Shown here piece by piece: positions 1-59,191 of a stretch of 64,000 nucleotides of DNA. Every line of letters begins with the position of its first letter. The first letter of the stretch is position 1. The position numbers were made by a program, and so were the translations under genes. The notes under the pieces are model-generated. The model had not been told where the DNA came from and ran no database searches. It saw only the letters and a list, made by a program, of their open reading frames with translations. The DNA lies in NCBI GenBank assembly GCA_013375495.1, contig JABXKC010000007.1, positions 57,473 to 121,472 of the forward strand. Reading direction: 5' to 3'. The stretch comes from Promethearchaeota archaeon (GTDB lineage Archaea; Asgardarchaeota; Lokiarchaeia; Sigynarchaeales; SOKP01).

Positions 1-1383
1 CTTATCAGGGTATAAGCTTAACCTACCATTTATAGAAAGTGGTAATTTTTGATCAGAATAAATGTAGTTAATTTTTTTCGCATATTCTAAAAGTTCTTCC
101 CTAAAATCTGGATGAGCTATATTTATCATTTGTAAAACTCTTTCACGTATACTTTTTCCAAAAAGATAAGCGATTCCCCATTCAGTAACAACATAATGAA
201 TGTCACCCCTTGTTATAACTACTCCCGAGCCGGGTTGAAGATACGGAACAATTCTCGAAACTAGAGTTCCATCCTTAAGAGTCGCAGTGCTAGGGATCAC
301 AGCTATTGGTTTTCCATCTTTAGAACGGTTTGCACCTCTAACGAAATCTACTTGACCACCAATACCGCTATAAAATGAATGTCCAAGCGAGTCTGCATTA
401 ATCTGTCCTGTTAAATCAATTGTAAGGGCAGCGTTAATAGCCACTTGCTTTTTATTTTGGCTAATTATAAAGGGATCGTTACAATAATTACTTGGATGAA
501 ATTCAACAAAGGGATTGTTGTCTACAAAATCATAAAGCCGCCGGGAACCCATAACAAAAGAACAAATTATTTTTCCCTTATGAATAGTCTTCTTTTTACA
601 TGTAATAACACCTTTTTCGACGAGATCAACAATTCCATCTGAAAATACTTCACTATGTACTCCTAAATCTTTTTTTTCGTCTAACTCAACTAACACAGCG
701 TTGGGAATTTTCCCAATCCCCATTTGTATTGTTGATTCATCTTCAATGAGTGATGCAACATACTTTCCTATTTTAGTAACCGTCTCATCTGGAGGATCGT
801 AAGTAAACTCTATAATATCATGATCTGATATAATATAAGCATCTATATCATTCATGTGAATGAATGAATCACCTAGTGTGCGCGGCATCTTAGGATTAAC
901 TTCCGCAACCACATATTCAGCTGCTTCTGCTATAGGTTTTGCTATATCAACATTAATACCATAACTACAAAATCCAAATTCATCTGGAGGACTTACTTGA
1001 ATAAGAGCGGTCTTTAGGTGCATCTGTCCCCGTTCAAAAAATCCTGGAATGTCTGAAAGCAGCATTGGAGTGTAATCTGCAAATCCTTTTTTAACAGCTT
1101 CTCGGAGATTTTCACTGATGAAAAAAACATTATGCCGAAATAAATCTTCATTACCTCCCGCAGTTTTATAATAATCGAGATCAGAAAGACTTATAAAATG
1201 TATCATCTCCACATCAGAAAGCTGAGGACCAAGTTCAATAAGTTTTGAAGTGAGGTCGAGTGGCTCAGAACACCCTGAATCAATAAAAATTCGGTCTCCA
1301 GGTTTAATATATTTCTTGATAGCATCTTCTACATTTACATGTTTTTGTTTAAATTTTTTAATATTACTCAAATCATTTGCCAT
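1..1383 (-). CDS. Acetyl-CoA hydrolase/4-hydroxybutyrate CoA-transferase family protein (C-terminus off window)
   Basis: Reads open from an ATG at 1383 to the window edge, giving 461 codons with the C-terminus missing. The family moves CoA between acyl groups and carboxylates such as acetate or 4-hydroxybutyrate. Signature segments visible are VVAEVNPKMPRTLG, GIGKIPNAV, GVHSEVFSDG and GIGGQVDFVRGA. The last visible residues follow a segment (IAHPDFREELLEYAKK) that resembles the C-terminal end of the CoA-transferase domain in members that continue into an acetyltransferase-like domain, so the full protein may be longer than the usual 430 residues. It lies just downstream of the sirtuin on the same strand, with 31 bases between them. 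The exact acyl substrate cannot be read from the sequence. Confidence 0.9.
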   Translation of the reverse strand, partial: MANDLSNIKKFKQKHVNVEDAIKKYIKPGDRIFIDSGCSEPLDLTSKLIELGPQLSDVEMIHFISLSDLDYYKTAGGNEDLFRHNVFFISENLREAVKKGFADYTPMLLSDIPGFFERGQMHLKTALIQVSPPDEFGFCSYGINVDIAKPIAEAAEYVVAEVNPKMPRTLGDSFIHMNDIDAYIISDHDIIEFTYDPPDETVTKIGKYVASLIEDESTIQMGIGKIPNAVLVELDEKKDLGVHSEVFSDGIVDLVEKGVITCKKKTIHKGKIICSFVMGSRRLYDFVDNNPFVEFHPSNYCNDPFIISQNKKQVAINAALTIDLTGQINADSLGHSFYSGIGGQVDFVRGANRSKDGKPIAVIPSTATLKDGTLVSRIVPYLQPGSGVVITRGDIHYVVTEWGIAYLFGKSIRERVLQMINIAHPDFREELLEYAKKINYIYSDQKLPLSINGRLSLYPDK

Positions 1384-25951: not shown

Positions 25952-27154
25952 TTATTTTGTATGTAATTCTATTATATCATTTTCTTTTAACTCGTAATCC
26001 AAACCCACTTTTTTCCTTTCTTGTTTATCGTCTTTCCGAATGATTATTGCATGATCGAATGATTCATAAAAACTTCGATGTATTTTTAAAGCCACATCTC
26101 GTATTGTTGGTTGAGCAGAACTATAATCTAGAATTAGCGGTTTTTCAGCAACAACACCCTTATGCATGGTATATATCTTTATTTTTCTTAAAAAAGTTAA
26201 AACCATTTTTCCAAAATCCTCAGGGATCTCCTTCTTTTTTACGCTCGTTCCAATTATAAATGGGAATTGTTCTGAATAATGATCCTCAATTTCATAAAAA
26301 GTATCTTTTGTAAGAGATAAGTCTCCCTTCGTTCCTAAGATAATAGCTTTTTTATATGTGATGGAGGGATTTAGTGTATCAACAACATCTTCAAGATTAA
26401 TCTTCCCGAAAACTTTAACAATGCTATTTCGTATACCTCCTGCATGAGTTATTTCTCTAATTCTCTCCGTCAATTCTTCAATATTGTTATTTTCTTTGGC
26501 TTCACTCGTTAAATAAAATACTTGAATCTTATTAGAACCTGTCTTTTCAATTGTAATTGGAGGGGGTAGAATATTTATCCTTACATGAGATTCGTATAAT
26601 TCCTTTAGAAGCAAATCTAATTGCTCTTTATAATTACGCGATAAGTCTATGCAAAAGCATATTAGATCGCAGGCTCTTAGTTGAGATATTATCTCTTTAC
26701 CGTTTCCTATTCCACTTGCAGCTCCCTCCATAATTGAGGGCATATCAACAATTTGATAACGAACTTTATTATATTCATAAATACCAATTTCAGGAAGAGC
26801 CGTAAATTTGCCAATCTTTTCTTTTGCAGCCCCGGTTAATAAATTCAGAAGGGATGTTTTTCCAACGCCGGGAGAATGATAATCACTTATTAGAATTAGT
26901 TGGATTCCCTCTTTTTTTATTGAAAAAGGACTAACTTGCTTACCCATGGATTTTAGTCGGGTTTTCTGTGCTTCTTGTTCTCTTCTAAGTTTTGCGAGAC
27001 GCGATTTGTTTAGAGCAACTATTTTTTCTGTAGCTTTATGTTTAGGAACTAAGGACAGATACTCTTCCAGGCACTTTATCTTTTCATCAATTGTAGTGGC
27101 TTCCAAATATTTTTGATATGCTGCTTGTGCTTCTGGTCCTATATTTGAACTCAT
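25952..27154 (-). CDS. DRG/Rbg-like GTPase with TGS domain, divergent G motifs
   Basis: A 400-residue protein laid out like eukaryotic and archaeal DRG GTPases. It has an N-terminal helical segment with VPKHKATEK and RLAKLRREQ (about 36-60), a G domain, and a C-terminal TGS domain (about 336-400). The P-loop SPGVGKTS (94-101) is usable. The DxxG motif reads DMPS (137-140), losing its glycine, and the guanine-specificity motif reads TKGD instead of NKxD. DRG proteins bind ribosomes and regulate translation. These changes suggest altered nucleotide handling. It is 27 bases downstream of a longin-like gene, clearly an operon. Confidence 0.8.
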   Translation of the reverse strand: MSSNIGPEAQAAYQKYLEATTIDEKIKCLEEYLSLVPKHKATEKIVALNKSRLAKLRREQEAQKTRLKSMGKQVSPFSIKKEGIQLILISDYHSPGVGKTSLLNLLTGAAKEKIGKFTALPEIGIYEYNKVRYQIVDMPSIMEGAASGIGNGKEIISQLRACDLICFCIDLSRNYKEQLDLLLKELYESHVRINILPPPITIEKTGSNKIQVFYLTSEAKENNNIEELTERIREITHAGGIRNSIVKVFGKINLEDVVDTLNPSITYKKAIILGTKGDLSLTKDTFYEIEDHYSEQFPFIIGTSVKKKEIPEDFGKMVLTFLRKIKIYTMHKGVVAEKPLILDYSSAQPTIRDVALKIHRSFYESFDHAIIIRKDDKQERKKVGLDYELKENDIIELHTK

Positions 27155-29966: not shown

Positions 29967-31493
29967 CTAAAAAATTTCACTAATGTTCTTATATAACGCA
30001 GAACTATTGGTCTGAAATTCTTCGTGAGTTACAAATAGACTTTGAAAGCTGGGTAAACTCCCGAGTATACTAGCACCATTAAATATGGCAAATTGTAAGT
30101 TTTCTGGTACGAAGAATCTTGTTACCTCCTCTGAAGACTCATAAAAACCAGAAAATTCCCTTGCGGGTGGAGCGTCCTTTATGATCTCAGGAGGTACCTC
30201 AGGTATCTCTTCTAATGGAAAACTTTTTCCACAATAAGGACAAAAAATCGATGCTTCATCTTCAACTTTTTTTTTGCAATTAGGACAAACTATCTTCCCT
30301 TTTTCAGGTTTAGGATTTATGCCTATTTTGACACTTCCAATTGAAAGCTCTGGTAAAACAATTCTACCATTACAAGATGGACAGAACTCCTTACCATCAG
30401 TTAGATCTACTAACGTACCACAGTGCGGACAAGTATCTTCCTTCTTCTGTGATTTTTCTCTTAATTTCATTTTTTGCCTTTCTTCCCGTGTGGATTTAAC
30501 TATTTTTGGCTTAGGTATTTTTCCCAGCTGTGGGATTAATTGGGCCAATTCTGATCTCAATCTTTCCTCAAATCCAGAATACGAGAGATTTCCACCGGAT
30601 ATCATAACATGTGAAAGAAGATCACTCCAATAATATTTGTCAATTCCTTGCAAGCTATTTAAAACCGCTTGTGGAATGTTTAAGATGTTATAACCTAATA
30701 AGTTAGGCTTAAATAATACTTCTGGAGCCTCGTGGAAGATATAATTTGGTATATTAATATTAGATCCATCTGGCATTGTAAAACTAAAATTATCGTCTAA
30801 CTTTGGAGGGTGTTCAGGATCTAAAGCAAAAAAGCAGTTTTTTTCTTTGATATCTTTAATTATTTCGTCGACAGCACTTGATTCAATATTAATACCTTCT
30901 CTCATAAGTAAATTCTTTAAATGTTGATTTACATCTGTACCAGCTAAGGTTAATTTTTGTACCGATTGATCAACAATTTCGCCACTCAGAATGGGGCATA
31001 CCCATGTGGTTCCATCTCCACTCTCTATAACAGTTCCGGTTGTCAACCCTACACTAAACAGCGACAGTATAGGTGTTGGAATCATTATTAAACTTTTTAC
31101 TCTATGGGTTTCATATAAAACACGAGCAATATATTCCTTAGTTTCTCGCTGAACAAATGGAGGTTCAGTGTATAATACTGGATAATGAGATAGATTTTCA
31201 ATTCTTAATAGCGAATAAAAAATATAATTTAAAATTTCATAGAAATCGTTCCAATCCTTTATTGCACCCCGTTCGATAGGGTGTTTTATTTTTAGAACTC
31301 CTCGCATTTTTGAAGCATCAGATCCGATATATATGTTTCGGGCTCCAACATCAACCATTACAGCTTTATATTTTTCAGTACCAGTGATGGTGGGAAAAAC
31401 AAACCTAGGACTAGGCTCTCCCGCGAATCCTACCTTAGTGTAGGCTGAACCAATGTCAACGATAATCGGAGTTCCGGGTAATGGTATTGCCAT
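29967..31493 (-). CDS. Actin-related protein with two inserted zinc ribbons
   Basis: A 508-residue actin-family protein, about 130 longer than actin. Actin motifs: DIGSAYTKVGFAG (13-25), ESGDGTTWVCP (157-167, phosphate loop), SGGNLSYSGFEERL (299-312, adenosine site) and the terminal NGASILGSLPSFQSLFVTHEEF (472-493). Between the last two, residues about 325-460 are extra. This insert is basic, then carries two zinc ribbons: C355/C358/C371/C374 and C403/C406/C418/C421. The phosphate loop keeps the DG.T pattern. It should bind ATP and may not polymerise normally. A TATA box sits 38-46 bases ahead. Confidence 0.9.
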   Translation of the reverse strand: MAIPLPGTPIIVDIGSAYTKVGFAGEPSPRFVFPTITGTEKYKAVMVDVGARNIYIGSDASKMRGVLKIKHPIERGAIKDWNDFYEILNYIFYSLLRIENLSHYPVLYTEPPFVQRETKEYIARVLYETHRVKSLIMIPTPILSLFSVGLTTGTVIESGDGTTWVCPILSGEIVDQSVQKLTLAGTDVNQHLKNLLMREGINIESSAVDEIIKDIKEKNCFFALDPEHPPKLDDNFSFTMPDGSNINIPNYIFHEAPEVLFKPNLLGYNILNIPQAVLNSLQGIDKYYWSDLLSHVMISGGNLSYSGFEERLRSELAQLIPQLGKIPKPKIVKSTREERQKMKLREKSQKKEDTCPHCGTLVDLTDGKEFCPSCNGRIVLPELSIGSVKIGINPKPEKGKIVCPNCKKKVEDEASIFCPYCGKSFPLEEIPEVPPEIIKDAPPAREFSGFYESSEEVTRFFVPENLQFAIFNGASILGSLPSFQSLFVTHEEFQTNSSALYKNISEIF

Positions 31494-32975: not shown

Positions 32976-33153
32976 TTTATAATTTACTACACACATTTAT
33001 TTCATCCAGTAAAGAACCTAGAAAATCTAATTTCTTTTCTCACTTGATATATAATTGATAAGAACATTTTTTAAAGCTAAAATTCTATATTGATATTAAA
33101 CACTTCATTTAAAAAATATAAAAAAATAGAACGAACTAAAATTTGTGATTAAA

Positions 33154-33867
33154 ATGTCTGATAAACTAAGTAAACCGGTAAACGAAATATTTTTAAGATC
33201 TTACCCTAAAGTAATATTTTTCTGGCCTATGGCTCTCTTTTCGTTTGTATTATGGCTGTTGCAAATGCTTTACCCAACACCCCTTGCAATATTCGGCAAC
33301 ATCTGGCTTATCGTCTTTTTCATTAATATGTTTATCGTTGCTTTCGATTTTAGCAGTACGAAATTTTTCGTTTTAATTCTCATTGTCGTAGTCGTAATAT
33401 TACTTCTTGTTTTTCTCGTACCAGGAATGTTTGCTGCTCTACCAGGAGGAGAGTTTAATCCGGGTTTAACAGCGGAATTTTACGTGGTAATAACTATTGT
33501 TATGGCATTTGTTCTAGGACTCGTTATTTTGGGATCGAGATTTGATTACTGGAAAATTGAAAGAAATGAAATCTATCATAAGAGTGGAATTTTCTCAACC
33601 GCAGAAAGAATTCCTACAAAAAGTTTACGAATCAGGAAGGAAATTCCAGATGTGTTTGAGTTCTTTATATTGCGAGCAGGATCAATTACGCTTATGCCAG
33701 GCCATGGGGACGTAAATGTAGATACCTATTTGGATCTATGGCGTATTCCCCCTAACTACGGTGCTAAACATAAACAAGAAACAGAAGCAGATAGACTACT
33801 TATTGAGCCATGTCTCAATAGAACCAGACGAATTGGACGAATAGCTAAGAGAAAAATCAAAATTTAA
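33154..33867 (+). CDS. Membrane protein with PH-like (DUF304/bPH2-type) domain
   Basis: A 237-residue protein. Three or four helices occupy the N-terminal half (about 18-45, 48-65, 70-95 and 110-130), then a small cytosolic beta-rich part: YWKIERNEIYHKSGIFST, AERIPTKSLRIRKEI and AGSITLMPGH match the bacterial PH-like fold of the YdbT/DUF304 class. The end is basic. It may sense or anchor at membranes, but no function is known for this type. The ATG at 33154 is chosen; a GTG nine bases earlier is within what looks like a Shine-Dalgarno GTGAT. A T-rich terminator follows. Confidence 0.68.
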   Translation: MSDKLSKPVNEIFLRSYPKVIFFWPMALFSFVLWLLQMLYPTPLAIFGNIWLIVFFINMFIVAFDFSSTKFFVLILIVVVVILLLVFLVPGMFAALPGGEFNPGLTAEFYVVITIVMAFVLGLVILGSRFDYWKIERNEIYHKSGIFSTAERIPTKSLRIRKEIPDVFEFFILRAGSITLMPGHGDVNVDTYLDLWRIPPNYGAKHKQETEADRLLIEPCLNRTRRIGRIAKRKIKI

Positions 33868-33945: not shown

Positions 33946-34671
33946 ATGACACATCCTCTAATTTTGTTATTCGATTTTGACGGCGTAGTAATTACTCAAA
34001 AAGCACTTGAATTTACTGCTTTAAGGTACTTAAAAAAAAGATTCTATAATTGGAAAAACACCGAATCATTGAGATTAATAGATATTGCTAGGCTTTTTGA
34101 AGAATCTGATTCGAGTAACAAACTGAAAGCGCTATTTAACATTTACCGTGTGTATAAACATTATATCCCAAGTCGATGGAAACGGATTTTATTTTTTATA
34201 AAATTTAGAAGAACTTTTCCCAAATATGAAAAACATGAGACTCTAAAACCCAACTTAGAAAAAGTTTTAGAAGAGTTAAAAAAACGGGAAGTGATTTTTG
34301 GAATTGTGTCAAATACAAGTGGAGAACGATTAGGGTTCTTTAGAAGTAGATTAAATTTAGATGATTTTTTTTCTGTTTACATTTCCCGTGATGATACCCC
34401 GATGAGAAAACCTCATGGGCATCCTGTTTTAATTGCTTTAAGGCAAATCAAACGGATTCTAAAGGTTCCTATAGATAAAAATAAAGTTTATCTAATTGGA
34501 GACCTTCCAACAGATATTGAGTGTGCAACTAACGCAGGAGTGAAGAGTATTGCTTTACTTTCTGGTCACGGTACTAAAACTGATTTGGAATTGGCTAACC
34601 CAAGCATAATTCTTCAAGAAATTAATGATATTTTAGAAATTGACCCTTTCAAAAAATTATTATTAGACTAA
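33946..34671 (+). CDS. HAD-superfamily hydrolase
   Basis: A 241-residue phosphatase-like protein. HAD motifs: LFDFDGVVI (DxD nucleophile motif), VSNTSGERL (motif II), a lysine in MRKPHGHP (motif III) and LIGDLPTDIECA (motif IV). A helical cap lies between motifs I and II, so it is of C1 cap type, as in phosphoglycolate phosphatase. Substrate unknown. It is 19 bases ahead of the large UFL1-like gene on the same strand, so the two may be co-transcribed. Confidence 0.87.
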   Translation: MTHPLILLFDFDGVVITQKALEFTALRYLKKRFYNWKNTESLRLIDIARLFEESDSSNKLKALFNIYRVYKHYIPSRWKRILFFIKFRRTFPKYEKHETLKPNLEKVLEELKKREVIFGIVSNTSGERLGFFRSRLNLDDFFSVYISRDDTPMRKPHGHPVLIALRQIKRILKVPIDKNKVYLIGDLPTDIECATNAGVKSIALLSGHGTKTDLELANPSIILQEINDILEIDPFKKLLLD

Positions 34672-34690: not shown

Positions 34691-37426
34691 ATGTTTAATT
34701 TGGAAGAGTTTGAACAAGATCAAGTAATTTACCCCCTAGTTGAGAAACTCGATAAGTTACTTGATAAAAATAAGAATGAAAAAGTAGAAAAAGTAATTAA
34801 GCAACTAGAGGAACTATTAGTAGAACAAAAGTATGCGATATTAGTATCTTATATTTTAAGTATTTTAGCAGAAAATGATTTTAACCTAATAACTGAGAGC
34901 GTCATTAAGATATTAGGAGATTACATAAATACAAATGATCCAAAACTAAAAGTTAATACTCTTATAATAATTGGATTTGCTATGCTCTCAAAACAAGAGT
35001 ATCTCGAGGAATTTTGTCCAAGGTTTATTAAATATTTAGGTGATGTAAACAAAGATGTACGAGATAATATCTATTATTTTTTACAAGAGGTTGGAAAGAA
35101 ATACCCCAAATTAATATGTACATATAAAGAAGAACTCCTCAATGCTTTGTTGACTGAAGATGCTGAAGAAAATCTAATTTCAATAATGAGTTTTCTAGAA
35201 AAATGCAGTGAATTTAATTTTGAAAATTTATATAGGTTAAGAGAAGTCTTGAAATCACTCATAAACCAACATTTTACTAAGGAATCCTCCAAAATTTATT
35301 CAAAAATATTAACCTTAGTTAAAATTATTTTCCCCTCCGTGAAAGATTTAAGCCTTGAAGAATTTGGATTAAAAGAGTTGTTAGACACGATTCAGAACAT
35401 TTTTTTGATGAAAAAATGTAATTTTACTGAAATTGCTAAGGAGACAGGAATAGATTTAAAAGGTTTTGTAAAAAATATGGGTAGACAAAACCAAAAAGAC
35501 CATAAGATATATTTTTACATTAGCAATGAGGAACAAAAAAATATCTATTTTTATGAACTTGAGAAAGAAAAATTGATGGATGTATTCGGGAAGGAAGAAA
35601 AATTACAGAAGAAAAATATCCTCAAGATTTTTTCCCCTATTATTCATACTGAACAGGAATTGAGATTATTTGTAGATATATTAATTAAGTTGGGACACAT
35701 TAAAGGGTATTATTCAAAATTGGGTTATTTTTACTCTTATAATTATGTAAAATCTGATTTGATGGACGCATTTCAAAATAATGGGATGGTAAATCTTAAG
35801 AAATTTGGTTATCTGCCTCCCGGTTTTATTAATAAAATCATAAGCGATATATCGAATCTAACTAAACAAGTTTTTTTGGTAGGAAAAAATAATGCTGCTT
35901 ACTACTCGTTAAAAAACATCCAGCAACAAATTAACACTGAATCAGCAAAAAATAATACAATTGATTTAAAATCGTATAGAGAACGCTTAACGGAGAAAGA
36001 TTTTATTAAGTTGATAAAAAATCTACCGAAAGGTTATTTAACTTATTTTAGAGCAGGAACACAATTATTAACTAATGTAGGATTGTTAAAAGTCAAAAAA
36101 GAAATTGAGAATTCTCGATTAATTGGTTATTATTCTATTCCAATACTCTCGAAGAGGTTAAATGTAAAGAGAGAATTATTAGTACAAATTTTAGAGAGTT
36201 TTATTGATATAAGAAGCGGAATATTTGACAAGAATAAAGAGATTTTTTATTATTCAAAATTTCTCAATCAGAAAATCGAAGAAATAAACTCAATATCAAA
36301 TCAAAATGAGAAAAATGAACAGATAAACTTTATGGCAAAAAATTTAAACATCGATAGGAGCCATATACTTACAAAATTAGACGAAAACTTAAAATTAATA
36401 GGAGAAGAAATAAAAGGAAAAGAACTAATCCAAATTGATGACTACATTGAAAAAACAGGTATGTCTTATAGTTTATTTATTGAATTTATCAATAATTTAG
36501 GTTTAAATTATTTTAAAAAAGGAGAACTCCTCATTTTTAACGAGAATAAAATCGAGGAATCCAAAAAAGACATCAAATCAATGCTCATGGAGAAATCTAA
36601 ATCTGAAAATATCATACAACTAGGAGAAATAGATGTGACCTCAAGTATCGTCGAAAATTTATTAAAAGAGTTGCAAAACGATGAAAAATTAAGGGGTATT
36701 TTCCATAATAAAGAAGGAAATTTAGTTTTTTACACTGAAAAAGGAATCGAAACTTTAATGCTCGAAAATAATTTTATGTTTTCTTTCCATGATTTTTTTT
36801 ATGGGAAGAATCTAGAAGATAAAGAAATTGAGATACTTTATTCTATTTTCGAAGAGCTACTGAAAAAGAAAAAGCTGAATGGTATATTTGACGAAGAAAC
36901 ATTAACTTTTGCTAGCTCAGATGTAGTTTTCGCTCAGGATTATAATACTGTTTTATTAAAATATGAAAAAATGATAACCGAATATATTAAAACTTTTAAT
37001 ATTGAATTCGAAAAAATTAAAAAAATCTTAACAAAACACAAAGAAACGATTTTTCCTCAAGAAATTAAGATGATTCAGGGAATCATCGATGTTATTAATG
37101 AAAAATATGTTCATTGGAGAAACGGATTAGAAGCGTTTGTGAGAAAAGCTAATACTTCTCTTTTAAAAAAACAGGGATATACTATAAGTAAATTCAAATC
37201 TATCTCATTAACTACAGGAAAAAAAGAAGATATAAAATTTTTTGAGGAAGATCCAGAAGTTATAGATTTAATATCAAATTTTAATAAATGGGTCAAATTA
37301 TTTAATGAATTAGAGCTTAAATATGGAAACATAATATTTTATCAAAAAAGGTTAATAAATGATGCAGAAAATATAGAAAATCGGAAAAAATTAGATGATC
37401 TGTTGAAGAACTTAAATCTAGTATGA
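34691..37426 (+). CDS. Large HEAT-like and tandem winged-helix protein, UFL1-like
   Basis: A 911-residue soluble protein. The first 230 residues are HEAT-like helices. From about 235 there are repeated winged-helix-like units (for example NFTEIAKETGIDLKGFVKN and FSPIIHTEQELRLFVDILIKLG). Residues about 325-395, in order ILIKLGHIKGYYS, YSYNYVKSDLMDAFQNNG and TKQVFLVGK, parallel the human UFL1 order LVNSGRLRG, IYSRTQSTWVDSFFRQNG and TTQLLFLK. Near 750 TFASSDVVFAQDYN parallels UFL1 VVFSDTVVVSEKF. UFL1 is the scaffold E3 for UFM1. The comparison is from memory; no UFM1, UFC1 or UBA5-like gene is in the window. Confidence 0.55.
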   Translation: MFNLEEFEQDQVIYPLVEKLDKLLDKNKNEKVEKVIKQLEELLVEQKYAILVSYILSILAENDFNLITESVIKILGDYINTNDPKLKVNTLIIIGFAMLSKQEYLEEFCPRFIKYLGDVNKDVRDNIYYFLQEVGKKYPKLICTYKEELLNALLTEDAEENLISIMSFLEKCSEFNFENLYRLREVLKSLINQHFTKESSKIYSKILTLVKIIFPSVKDLSLEEFGLKELLDTIQNIFLMKKCNFTEIAKETGIDLKGFVKNMGRQNQKDHKIYFYISNEEQKNIYFYELEKEKLMDVFGKEEKLQKKNILKIFSPIIHTEQELRLFVDILIKLGHIKGYYSKLGYFYSYNYVKSDLMDAFQNNGMVNLKKFGYLPPGFINKIISDISNLTKQVFLVGKNNAAYYSLKNIQQQINTESAKNNTIDLKSYRERLTEKDFIKLIKNLPKGYLTYFRAGTQLLTNVGLLKVKKEIENSRLIGYYSIPILSKRLNVKRELLVQILESFIDIRSGIFDKNKEIFYYSKFLNQKIEEINSISNQNEKNEQINFMAKNLNIDRSHILTKLDENLKLIGEEIKGKELIQIDDYIEKTGMSYSLFIEFINNLGLNYFKKGELLIFNENKIEESKKDIKSMLMEKSKSENIIQLGEIDVTSSIVENLLKELQNDEKLRGIFHNKEGNLVFYTEKGIETLMLENNFMFSFHDFFYGKNLEDKEIEILYSIFEELLKKKKLNGIFDEETLTFASSDVVFAQDYNTVLLKYEKMITEYIKTFNIEFEKIKKILTKHKETIFPQEIKMIQGIIDVINEKYVHWRNGLEAFVRKANTSLLKKQGYTISKFKSISLTTGKKEDIKFFEEDPEVIDLISNFNKWVKLFNELELKYGNIIFYQKRLINDAENIENRKKLDDLLKNLNLV

Positions 37427-37444: not shown

Positions 37445-37747
37445 CTACATTGTCCTTTTATCTTCGATTTGAGATATTATTTCCTCAATATCGATTTTTT
37501 GATTTGATTTAATTTTATACGATTTAGGAGAATAGGTACCATTCATCTCCAGAATACCTTCTTTTTCGAGATAATTAAGAGATCTCCAAATAAAATTTAT
37601 TTTAGAGCGATTGGAGGCTTTAATATTATTGCATCTTCTTATACTTTTAGTAGTAACTAAGGTGATGTTATTATCTATTAATTTATTTATCGCTTCTATA
37701 GTATCCCGTAAATTTTTTGAAAAAAAGTCCATAGAGACCTCGCTCAT
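37445..37747 (-). CDS. Small winged-helix protein
   Basis: A 100-residue protein with a likely winged helix: KSIRRCNNIKASNRSKINF as the recognition region, then WRSLNYLEKEGILEMNGTYS, where a helix leads into the wing. It converges on the UFL1-like gene, with 18 bases between stops. It could be a transcription regulator. Nothing shows its target. Confidence 0.55.
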   Translation of the reverse strand: MSEVSMDFFSKNLRDTIEAINKLIDNNITLVTTKSIRRCNNIKASNRSKINFIWRSLNYLEKEGILEMNGTYSPKSYKIKSNQKIDIEEIISQIEDKRTM

Positions 37748-48781: not shown

Positions 48782-50275
48782 ATGACCGAAGAATCTGAAA
48801 AAAGGGAAGATGAAACGAAAAAGGATATAGGTAAACCAGTAATTCTCAAAGCTGAAGCTTATAAAACAATAATATTATATGCTAGTAGATACGCAAATCA
48901 GGCCATATCTTCCGAAGATTGGAAAGAAATATATGGCCTTTTAATCGGATATTACAACGATGATTTCTTATATGTCGAAAGAGCAATCCCAATGACATAT
49001 GGTCACGATACTGATGTAGAATTTAGTGAAACAGATTATGGCGATGTAGAAAAAATACACGAAGATCTAGATAAAGAAGGTAAAGGATATTTCATTGTTG
49101 GTTGGTTTCATTCTCATCCAGGATTGACCTTATTTTTTTCTTATATTGATCTTATTAATCAACTTGGATTTCAGGGAAAATTTAGTGATGCTATAGGATT
49201 GGTTTTTGATCATACTCTTCTCGGGAAGAAAAAGGAAGAAAAGATTGATAACAATCTTCTAACTAAATATGATACGGGATTTGAGATATATCGATTAACT
49301 GACGTAACAATAGATTCTAATTCCGTTGAATTTGAGACAAATTATCATAAAGTAGATTATATTGTGGAAGGATTAAACAAATTCTTTTTTGCAAATGTTC
49401 TCGCTGAGTTATCTTCTTTAGCATCAGCAGGAAAACCACTTCAAGAAGCCTTTAAGGAGCAATATAAACTAGATTCAGATTATAAAGATATTGATGAAGT
49501 ATTAGATGACTCAAATAATTCATTATCACAAGAAGATCTTGTTGATATCCCTTTATCAGAAGATATTAAATTCAACGTTGATGATATTTTTTATGAGACT
49601 ATCATTGATAGCGACAAAATAAAGGAAGCAGCTGAAAAAATTATTTACGAAGGAAATCAGGCTTTTAAAAATAAAGATACATTTATGGGTATAGAAAAAT
49701 ATCGGCAAGGCATCGAAAAATATAAAGAAATCAATGATATGAATCGAGTAATGGATTTATTAAGAAAAGTATCGAGATCATGCATTACCAACAATCATTT
49801 GGTTATTGCCAGAGAATTTGCAGATGAATTATTTAAACTAGCAGAATTTAACAATCAAATTTTTTATAAAGGTATAGCAAATTATATAATTGGTTACATT
49901 ATCATAAGAGAAGGAGATATAGATGCATTAGAATATGGTTTGAAAAAGATTGAAGAAGCTGCTATCGATTTTATTAATGTTCAAGATTTTGCCGGTGCTG
50001 GAATGGCTTTTAATAAAATTGGATTGAGTTATGAAAAAAAAATAAAAAATATTGGAACCGCATGTCTCTTTTATCGGGAAGCTTTAGAAAATTATAATAA
50101 TGGTTTAACTTATAGTCATCCGCTAAGAATTACCCCATGGAGTAAGCCAGAAGTTCTGATTGAAAAAATAAGAGATTTGAGAGAGATTATTGATGTTTTA
50201 TTACCTGATATAGAGAGTTCTGATATAAAAAAGAAGATCGTGGATGATATGAAATCCATTCGTTATAATTTTTAA
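48782..50275 (+). CDS. Rpn11/CSN5-like MPN+ (JAMM) protease fused to TPR-like repeats
   Basis: A 497-residue protein. Residues 20-240 are a JAB1/MPN domain with an intact JAMM zinc site: E49 in EIYGLLIG, then H110-S-H112-P, then S120 and D123. The VGWFHSHPGLTLFFSYIDL stretch is strikingly like the Rpn11 and CSN5 sequence (VGWYHSHPGFG.WLSGVD). Such enzymes remove ubiquitin-like modifiers. An acidic linker (about 245-290) joins TPR-like helices (about 280-440). The MPN plus TPR layout is not the eukaryotic one. A C2HC-finger gene follows on the same strand. Confidence 0.85.
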   Translation: MTEESEKREDETKKDIGKPVILKAEAYKTIILYASRYANQAISSEDWKEIYGLLIGYYNDDFLYVERAIPMTYGHDTDVEFSETDYGDVEKIHEDLDKEGKGYFIVGWFHSHPGLTLFFSYIDLINQLGFQGKFSDAIGLVFDHTLLGKKKEEKIDNNLLTKYDTGFEIYRLTDVTIDSNSVEFETNYHKVDYIVEGLNKFFFANVLAELSSLASAGKPLQEAFKEQYKLDSDYKDIDEVLDDSNNSLSQEDLVDIPLSEDIKFNVDDIFYETIIDSDKIKEAAEKIIYEGNQAFKNKDTFMGIEKYRQGIEKYKEINDMNRVMDLLRKVSRSCITNNHLVIAREFADELFKLAEFNNQIFYKGIANYIIGYIIIREGDIDALEYGLKKIEEAAIDFINVQDFAGAGMAFNKIGLSYEKKIKNIGTACLFYREALENYNNGLTYSHPLRITPWSKPEVLIEKIRDLREIIDVLLPDIESSDIKKKIVDDMKSIRYNF

Positions 50276-58102: not shown

Positions 58103-59191
58103 TTATTTATTCTCTTCAATATGTTTAAAAAATAAGCCAATTCCCATTATCTTAAAAGTATCCTGAACATTTATGTTTCGTAATGCTGAGGTTTCAATGA
58201 AAAAGCTCTTCAATTCTTTTGCTTGATTCAATCCTTCTTCTTTAGTTACGGCTCTATCTACCTCTAAATCAATCTTATTCCCTACAAGAACGAAGGGTAT
58301 GTTGCCTAATTCCTTTTGTGCGTCTTTGAACCAGAAATTTATCGCTTCGTCAAAAGTCTCTCTTCGAGTAACGTCATAAACGATAAACGCGCAGTTTGCT
58401 CCTTTGTAATAATCACGTCTAACTCGTTTAAAATAGCTTTGACCTGCGAGATCAAAAATTAAAAATTTGATAATATCTTCTTTAAAACCTTGAACATGAT
58501 ATTGCTGTGTGGAAATCGAGATACCCAGAGTAGGGCGATAATCAATAATGTCTTCTTTTTTCAAAAATTGACTTACTAACGTAGTTTTACCTACTGCGGC
58601 TGAACCTAGCACAATTAATTTAAAAAGTTTTTCTATTTGTTTGTCTTTATCAAACTTATGAGTAGGGGTTACACCATTTATTATAGAGTTTGATTCTTTA
58701 ATTGAAAACTTATCTAATCCTAGAGAAAAATTATCATATATTCTTAAATTTGGTATTTCAAGAGAATTGAATTTAAAATCAAAACTATTTTCAAGTAACT
58801 GTGCGATTTTCTCAACAACAAGGTAAGCTATTGGAAAAAGAGAGTTTAAGTTTGTTTCATAATCGCAAACTAGTAATAGAATTGCTTCAGATCCCGCTTC
58901 TAAGTATATTATTCGATTGTCCTCAGTTTCGAATGAACCACTACCATACCGACCTGTCTTATATTCTAAGCTAATTTTATCAAGAAGATTTTCTACTATC
59001 GCAGTAAACGCTCCATAGATATCTTCTGATTCTTCATCTTTTTGAGTTGTTTCGGCAGATTTACCATATTTTGAAAATAATAAACCTTCATTTGAATAAA
59101 TAAAAGCTAGTATAACATCATCTCGTGATTCTACGAAATTTTTTAATAGAATCCGAAGATTTTCCTCTTTTGTTGCCGCTTTAGTTTCCAT
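58103..59191 (-). CDS. Roadblock/longin-like domain fused to a Rab-like GTPase
   Basis: A 362-residue fusion. Residues about 10-138 fit a roadblock or longin fold (VILAFIYSNEGLLFSKYGK, IYGAFTAIVENLLDKIS, RIIYLEAGSEAILLLVCDY, then a long helix). Residues about 188-360 are a full Rab-type GTPase: G1 GSAAVGKT (196-203), T221 in TLGISIS, DLAGQ (247-251), NKID (305-308) and TSA (334-336). Roadblock proteins bind Ras-like GTPases in eukaryotes and bacteria, so this puts a GTPase and a likely partner in one chain. No membrane anchor or C-terminal cysteine is seen. Confidence 0.88.
   Translation of the reverse strand: METKAATKEENLRILLKNFVESRDDVILAFIYSNEGLLFSKYGKSAETTQKDEESEDIYGAFTAIVENLLDKISLEYKTGRYGSGSFETEDNRIIYLEAGSEAILLLVCDYETNLNSLFPIAYLVVEKIAQLLENSFDFKFNSLEIPNLRIYDNFSLGLDKFSIKESNSIINGVTPTHKFDKDKQIEKLFKLIVLGSAAVGKTTLVSQFLKKEDIIDYRPTLGISISTQQYHVQGFKEDIIKFLIFDLAGQSYFKRVRRDYYKGANCAFIVYDVTRRETFDEAINFWFKDAQKELGNIPFVLVGNKIDLEVDRAVTKEEGLNQAKELKSFFIETSALRNINVQDTFKIMGIGLFFKHIEENK

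What the first reader, a model, noticed from the sequence alone, without database searches (positions are those of the whole stretch)
34691..37426. Candidate UFL1-like protein in an archaeon
Tandem winged helices and two local stretches (around residues 325-395 and near 750) follow the order and pattern of human UFL1, the UFM1 E3 scaffold. It also has a HEAT-like N-terminus. If true, it would place a UFMylation-like scaffold in an Asgard archaeon.
Basis: inference. Interest (0 to 1): 0.75.

Follow-up and report, generated by a model that had tools for sequence, protein, structure and literature searches.

The report
Asgard relative of UFL1-type scaffold proteins
This gene, found mainly in Lokiarchaeal genomes, makes a large scaffold-like protein whose predicted shape is closest to the human UFM1-ligase pair UFL1/UFBP1, but it lacks the UFL1 sequence signature, usually shares its genome with a closer UFL1 relative, and is usually found without a detectable UFM1-type conjugating enzyme.

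Summary
The ORF is real: 911 codons, one conserved family (65 of 227 genomes of its phylum), HEAT repeats (1-213), about eight winged-helix (WH) units (227-742) and C-terminal helices (743-907). By sequence it is not UFL1: no PF09743 hit, no UFL1 chain in PDB profile searches, no DDRGK motif. By predicted fold, UFL1 is the best PDB match of residues 215-911 (Foldseek 6e-11, UFBP1-UFL1 fusion 6e-7; next family, Pol III, 1.5e-4). Profile comparison links it to another Asgard protein ('A2') that passes PF09743 (hhalign 96%; controls under 2%), though WH units cannot be matched one to one. A2 occurs in 54 of the 65 genomes and is the closer UFL1/DDRGK1 relative; such homologues in Asgard archaea were reported in 2023. 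Best reading: a divergent relative in that WH-array class, a UFM1-independent scaffold, usually next to a HAD-phosphatase gene. In passing: 18 of 227 genomes hold a UFC1-like E2; in the two read in full it lies beside a ThiF-type E1 (the one tested is nearest UBA5) and a small Ubl. A 2023 survey saw UFC1 only in eukaryotes. Nine of the 18 carry the window family.

The parts
34691..37426 (+). 911-aa scaffold-like protein, HEAT + WH array + helices (the finding)
34691..35329 (+). N-terminal HEAT/ARM-type repeats, residues 1-213
35369..35563 (+). winged helix a, residues 227-291, mostly outside the UFBP1-UFL1 match
   Evidence: models; limits drawn from DSSP
35564..35737 (+). winged helix, residues 292-349, at the place of UFBP1 WH1' in the VIA alignment
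   Evidence: VIA to 8b9x: model 70-310 (window 284-524) to chain 0-255; register inferred, others possible
35738..35908 (+). winged helix, residues 350-406, at the place of the composite pWH'/pWH unit; one chain here
   Evidence: register inferred, others possible
35909..36916 (+). winged helices at residues 407-461, 462-521, 522-615, 618-682, 683-742, at the places of UFL1 WH1-WH5
   Evidence: VIA to 8ohd_A: model 163-652 (window 377-866) to UFL1 29-526; Foldseek; register inferred, others possible
36917..37411 (+). long helices, residues 743-907, at the place of the UFL1 C-terminal helical region
   Evidence: models; Foldseek alignment of 704 columns to 8qfc_B
33946..34671 (+). HAD-family phosphatase, 19 bases upstream, probable operon partner
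   Evidence: Pfam HAD_2 4.4e-24; directly upstream on the same strand in 41 of 51 full-length loci with an upstream ORF held, incl. 7 of 7 most distant
33145..33867 (+). 240-aa protein with hydrophobic stretches (by eye), no family match; second gene upstream
   Evidence: second upstream in 29 of 46 loci; no Pfam or NCBIfam hit
37445..37747 (-). 100-aa protein of unknown family, convergent neighbour
   Evidence: downstream neighbour in 44 of 56 loci; not so in the 7 most distant

Best explanation
A structural scaffold of the same winged-helix-array class as UFBP1/UFL1, in a divergent Asgard lineage with an added N-terminal HEAT solenoid. Shown: the family, its architecture by prediction, the fold rank, and the profile link to the Asgard UFL1/DDRGK1 homologue A2. 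Inferred: the WH array acts as a rod that docks on a large assembly, as UFL1 docks on the large ribosomal subunit; the HEAT part holds a partner; the neighbouring HAD phosphatase acts in the same process. It does not depend on a UFM1-type modifier, since most genomes that have it show no UFC1-like E2. Ribosome docking is the most likely single target, at about one in four.
Confidence: 0.5

Rival explanations
1. A working UFL1-like E3 scaffold for a UFM1-type modifier in Asgard archaea.
For: UFL1 is the top fold match. A UBA5-like E1, a UFC1-like E2 and a small Ubl lie together in at least two Asgard genomes, and 9 of 18 genomes with the E2 have the family.
Against: 56 of 65 genomes with the family show no UFC1-like E2, and 9 of 18 with the E2 lack the family; association weak (Fisher p 0.054, not corrected for kinship; the E2 hit of G157, counted among the 9, is a short piece with a stop). 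G001, the nearest relative, has no hit. No DDRGK motif in 43 rows; in human its Arg265 contacts UFC1 (PMC10937380 passage). A2 is closer to UFL1.
Confidence: 0.08
2. Convergence: tandem PCI-type winged helices plus helices of no special kinship to UFL1, a generic protein- or nucleic-acid-binding array.
For: Low TM-scores and pTM; COP9 and helical-bundle rows tie in VIA; hhalign registers are not unique; mammal UFL1 profile not matched.
Against: The three best UFL1 chains stand four to six orders of magnitude above Pol III in Foldseek, the fusion two; the profile link to A2 is far above two other WH families of the same phylum and above shuffles.
Confidence: 0.27
3. A HEAT-based adaptor, coat or condensin-type subunit in which the HEAT part sets the kinship and the WH units are additions.
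For: Pfam Cnd1 over cut-off; AP-3 beta 8.7e-5 and a HEAT protein (2db0) 2.4e-4 in the PDB profile search; HEAT/ARM rows fill the VIA list of the full-length model.
Against: HEAT/ARM matches are generic across unrelated proteins and cover about residues 1-237; no adaptin or condensin domain is matched after them; most of the chain is WH and helices.
Confidence: 0.1
4. A transcription-side protein like the Pol III C82/RPC62 subunit (tandem WH plus coiled coil).
For: Four Foldseek rows of Pol III chain O at 1.5e-4 to 9e-4, human RPC62 at 1.5e-3.
Against: Probabilities of those four rows only 0.25-0.41, far below UFL1; C82 has four WH (recalled), here about eight; no polymerase subunit among the 26 other window proteins scanned with Pfam.
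Confidence: 0.05

Closest known systems
UFL1 (E3 UFM1-protein ligase 1, PF09743) with UFBP1/DDRGK1 (PF09756)
   Same: Row of winged helices followed by C-terminal helices; best PDB fold match; the VIA register is in line with pWH, WH1-5 and CTR of UFL1 and WH1'/pWH' of UFBP1 (human architecture from passages of PMC10937380 and PMC9627666).
   Different: No Pfam match, no DDRGK motif, one chain instead of two, added HEAT solenoid and one more WH, no UFC1-like E2 found in 56 of 65 hosts.
Asgard protein A2 (about 790 aa; e.g. L045:439-2808:-), probably what the 2023 survey counted as Asgard UFL1/DDRGK1 (inference; its supplement was not read)
   Same: Tandem WH array, profile-related, shared by 54 genomes.
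   Different: A2 has a Cys-rich N-terminus, WH units over about residues 142-434, then weak beta-domain matches and a VPS28-like end (over cut-off in 2 of 7); it passes PF09743, the window family does not.
PCI-type winged helices (COP9 signalosome chain D, subunit 4 by recall; proteasome lid)
   Same: One WH unit at window residues 617-684 fits with rmsd about 2.
   Different: No PCI family match in the window protein at E<=1.
Condensin/adaptin-type HEAT proteins
   Same: N-terminal HEAT repeats.
   Different: No other domain of these proteins was matched.

Membership tests
UFL1 (E3 UFM1-protein ligase 1) | Match to Pfam PF09743 over its cut-off | tested here: not met
   Window protein: not among matches at E<=1. 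46 members: 43 families matched, 25 shown, none UFL1; 43 fragments: 62 families, 25 shown, none UFL1. A2 proteins: 7 of 7 over cut-off.
UFL1 (E3 UFM1-protein ligase 1) | Row of WH units followed by a C-terminal helical region | tested here: met
   By predicted structure only and Foldseek over most of the UFL1 chain. The exact count and register of units is inferred; alternatives exist.
UFL1 (E3 UFM1-protein ligase 1) | Direct sequence homology to eukaryotic UFL1 | tested here: inconclusive
   No UFL1 chain in PDB profile searches to E 10; hhalign with 19 mammalian UFL1s at most 2.3%, A2 at most 11.7% in the same test, the most distant sub-profile 11.2%.
UFBP1/DDRGK1 | DDRGK motif | tested here: not met
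   0 of 43 family rows and 0 of 11 A2 rows hold DDRGK.
UFMylation system | UFM1 modifier in the same genome | tested here: inconclusive
   Own genome not held. PF03671: 0 of 23 related genomes over cut-off. A Ubl only weakly like UFM1 occurs in some genomes.
UFMylation system | UFC1-type E2 in the same genome | tested here: inconclusive
   Own genome not held. 9 of 65 genomes with the family have an E2 match, one of them a short piece with a stop; none in G001.
UFMylation system | Stimulates Ubl transfer from E2 to a lysine | not testable with these tools
   Needs reconstitution.
Condensin/adaptin HEAT family | HEAT repeats over the family cut-off | tested here: met
   PF12717 27.6 bits, cut-off 26.4; generic repeat match, residues 63-174 only.

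The most novel reading that the evidence does not exclude
The UFBP1/UFL1 pair of eukaryotes arose by splitting one archaeal chain inside a winged helix. In Asgard A2 the UFBP1-like and UFL1-like stretches run on in a single protein: its profile matches the engineered human UFBP1-UFL1 fusion across the joint (9.8e-10), far better than UFBP1 (1.7e-3) or UFL1 (0.07) alone, though a longer target alone helps the score. The window family would keep the same unsplit array by fold, as a second branch of the scaffold made before it was tied to UFM1.
Probability: 0.25. Interest if true: 0.8.

Novelty: new variant of a known kind. Interest (0 to 1): 0.52.

Why it matters
UFL1's WH array is an unusual E3 scaffold without a catalytic centre of its own. 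An archaeal branch that keeps such an array but mostly lives without a UFM1-type system would suggest that the scaffold came first and the modifier was added later, as the 2023 survey suggested for UFL1/DDRGK1. The side finding (UBA5-like E1, UFC1-like E2 and a small Ubl side by side) would, if it holds, push the origin of UFM1-type conjugation back into Asgard archaea and make the question testable in vitro.

Tried and rejected
Direct sequence routes to UFL1: Pfam, NCBIfam, PDB by single sequence and by profile, hhalign with mammalian UFL1: none gave a UFL1 match for the window family. VIA on the full-length model lists only HEAT/ARM rows, so it does not bear on the WH part; in the 50 VIA rows of the 215-911 model 8qfc and 9gy4, Foldseek's ranks 1 and 3, are not shown. 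The idea that the window protein is the Asgard UFL1 reported in print was dropped when A2 was found. A functional tie to the UFM1-like cassette was dropped on co-occurrence. For that count five weak matches were left out of the family (70 to 65; they cover only HEAT residues 20-155 or so) and nine rows were left out of A2 (75 to 66: G096, G097, G098, G103, G112, G127, G181, G187, G206, whose matches cover only about residues 381-787). A second profile search of the protein collection listed 120 of 170 hits, all ids of the same family. Promoter and terminator scan near chance. Rfam, PHROGs and PADLOC were not searched; no tree was built; the catalytic Cys of the UFC1-like E2 was not checked.

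Full report
What is there. The ORF at 34691-37426 (+) codes for 911 residues without a stop. It has 287 homologues at E<=1e-3 in the protein collection; the best 120 were listed, 571 to 925 residues long, and the names their sources give include Lokiarchaeota, Promethearchaeota, Hodarchaeota, Hermodarchaeota, one Thorarchaeota and one bacterial label. The 42 loci found in named genomes are all titled Lokiarchaeota or Lokiarchaeia. Across 227 genomes of the phylum of G001 (the genome of the nearest relative, 83% identical), 70 had a match; 5 of these are weak HEAT-only matches, leaving 65. The most distant full-length relatives (L087-L093) are 22-23% identical to it, and for residues 215-911 six of them still align end to end with the near ones (100%, 688 columns).

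Architecture. Pfam sees only the HEAT region (Cnd1, 3.6e-6, residues 63-174; 42 of 46 members at E<=1). AlphaFold2 on 46 sequences gives pLDDT 85, pTM 0.49: HEAT helices to residue 213, a row of winged-helix units at 227-742, then long helices to 907. A second model of residues 215-911 with 43 sequences, including the distant ones, gives pLDDT 87.5, pTM 0.53. The units are well predicted, their mutual placing is not. The limits of the WH units were drawn by me from the DSSP strings.

Sequence comparison. The window protein has no PF09743 match, and profiles of the family find no UFL1 or DDRGK1 chain in the PDB up to E 10. Yet in 13 of 14 genomes tried that carry the family, PF09743 rings over its cut-off at another protein, mostly about 790 residues, here A2. 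A2 proteins match PCI, PF09743 and DDRGK over cut-off (7 of 7 scanned), and the A2 profile finds the UFBP1-UFL1 fusion in the PDB at 9.8e-10, which serves as the positive control. hhalign of the window family (A3) with A2: 96.3%, score 83.7, 229 columns; with the Lokiarchaeal alignment A1 alone 84.3%. A3 against Asgard EAP30 (15 sequences) and ScpB (17 sequences), two other WH families of the phylum: 0.9% each; best of 30 column shuffles of A2 1.3%; reversed A2 0.2%. EAP30 and ScpB profiles are shorter than A2, so the comparison favours A2 somewhat. Three disjoint sub-profiles (6, 4 and 33 sequences) give 95.2, 90.5 and 93.9%. Other registers score 67.7 and 49.9 against 83.7, and the distant and middle sub-profiles prefer other registers, so the kinship of the WH class is better supported than the unit-by-unit match. 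With 19 mammalian UFL1 sequences the family gives at most 2.3% and A2 at most 11.7%: that profile is too shallow to decide.

Neighbourhood. The HAD phosphatase gene 33946-34671 lies 19 bases upstream and sits directly upstream on the same strand in 41 of 51 full-length loci with an upstream ORF held, including 7 of 7 of the most distant (L087-L093). Exceptions: in L034, L037, L038, L039 and L099 the gene upstream is the 33145-like one; in L094-L096 a weak HAD match lies on the other side and strand; L097 and L098 have neither directly upstream. The 100-aa gene 37445-37747 is the downstream neighbour in 44 of 56 loci, but in none of the 7 most distant. This points to a joint role with the HAD enzyme; what that is, is unknown.

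UFM1 system. The window's genome is not held. In 23 related genomes UFM1 (PF03671) is over cut-off in 0, UFC1 (PF08694) in 2. At these two places (L113, L114) lies a gene cassette: a ThiF-type E1 (Pfam in both; in the one compared with the PDB, L114, UBA5 is best at 4.9e-49 and MoeB next at 2.4e-26; NCBIfam gives MoeB/ThiF models below their cut-offs), a Prok-JAB protein (over cut-off in L113 only), a small Ubl, and an E2. The E2 of L114 finds 25 UFC1 rows in the PDB (3.3e-4 to 2e-3) and no other E2; by Pfam UFC1 is over cut-off, with UEV and UQ_con far below. E2 relatives occur in 18 of 227 genomes (21 places; one, in G157, is a short piece with a stop). In 14 of the 21 loci I could pick a Ubl by eye: 8 are separate ORFs, of which 7 stop directly after Val-Gly and one a residue later; in 6 the Ubl runs on into the E2, with Val-Gly at the matching place, where I cut. 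The Ubl profile itself matches UFM1 only weakly (a redesigned ubiquitin first at 0.021; UFM1 E 1.0; Pfam Ufm1 in 2 of 14, best 0.044), so calling it UFM1 is not yet justified. [quoted passage not shown] PMC9192718 (methods passage) names 'Asgard archaeal UFM1' among winged-helix outgroup sequences; since UFM1 has no winged helix I take this to mean UFL1-type proteins (inference). PMC11698992 (passage) reports that the fold of a crenarchaeal ribosomal protein, aS33, also occurs in the predicted human UFL1. I found no paper on such a cassette in the held library (searches; bioRxiv not held); of the papers listed I read passages of PMC10183829, PMC11698992, PMC9192718, PMC11354881, PMC12985071 and PMC12355090 only.

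Link between the two. Of 65 genomes with the window family 9 have the E2; of 18 with the E2, 9 have the family (Fisher p 0.054); A2 and E2 share 11 genomes (p 0.005); the window family and A2 share 54 (p 3e-29). None of these tests corrects for kinship. Neither WH protein is therefore dedicated to the cassette. No row of either alignment carries the DDRGK motif (0 of 43, 0 of 11); in human the Arg of this motif contacts UFC1 (passage).

Verdict. A real, conserved protein family, mainly of Lokiarchaea, with a UFBP1/UFL1-like predicted fold; not a UFL1 by sequence; most likely a UFM1-independent scaffold and a divergent relative of the Asgard protein that is the nearer UFL1 homologue. Mechanism beyond scaffolding is inference.

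Noticed in passing
L114:5237-9266 (G010) and L113:5323-9399 (G109); E2 loci L115-L135: Gene cassette with a ThiF-type E1 (UBA5-like in L114), a Prok-JAB protein, a small Ubl with a Val-Gly end and a UFC1-like E2; E2 relatives in 18 of 227 genomes of the phylum. In 6 of 14 cases the Ubl is fused to the E2. A 2023 survey found UFC1 and UFM1 only in eukaryotes (passage).
   Followed up: partly
L045:439-2808:- and relatives (alignment A2): Single-chain Asgard protein whose winged helices match DDRGK1 and UFL1 models, and whose profile runs across the joint of the engineered human fusion 8b9x: a possible unsplit ancestor of the UFBP1/UFL1 pair. Its C-terminal part also matches the NCBIfam model Sel_Asgard below cut-off.
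   Followed up: partly
window 29967-31493 (-): Actin-family protein (PF00022, 9e-72) with zinc-ribbon matches at about residues 353-429; found near the gene in many of the Lokiarchaeal loci.
   Followed up: no
window 48782-50275 (+): JAB1/MPN-domain protein (PF01398, 1e-11) of 497 aa.
   Followed up: no
window 58103-59191 (-): Ras-like small GTPase (5.5e-41) with about 190 residues before the GTPase domain.
   Followed up: no
window 25952-27154 (-): GTPase with a TGS domain, DRG-like.
   Followed up: no
window 33145-33867 (+): Conserved 240-aa protein with hydrophobic stretches (by eye) and no family match, second gene upstream of the finding in 29 of 46 loci.
   Followed up: no
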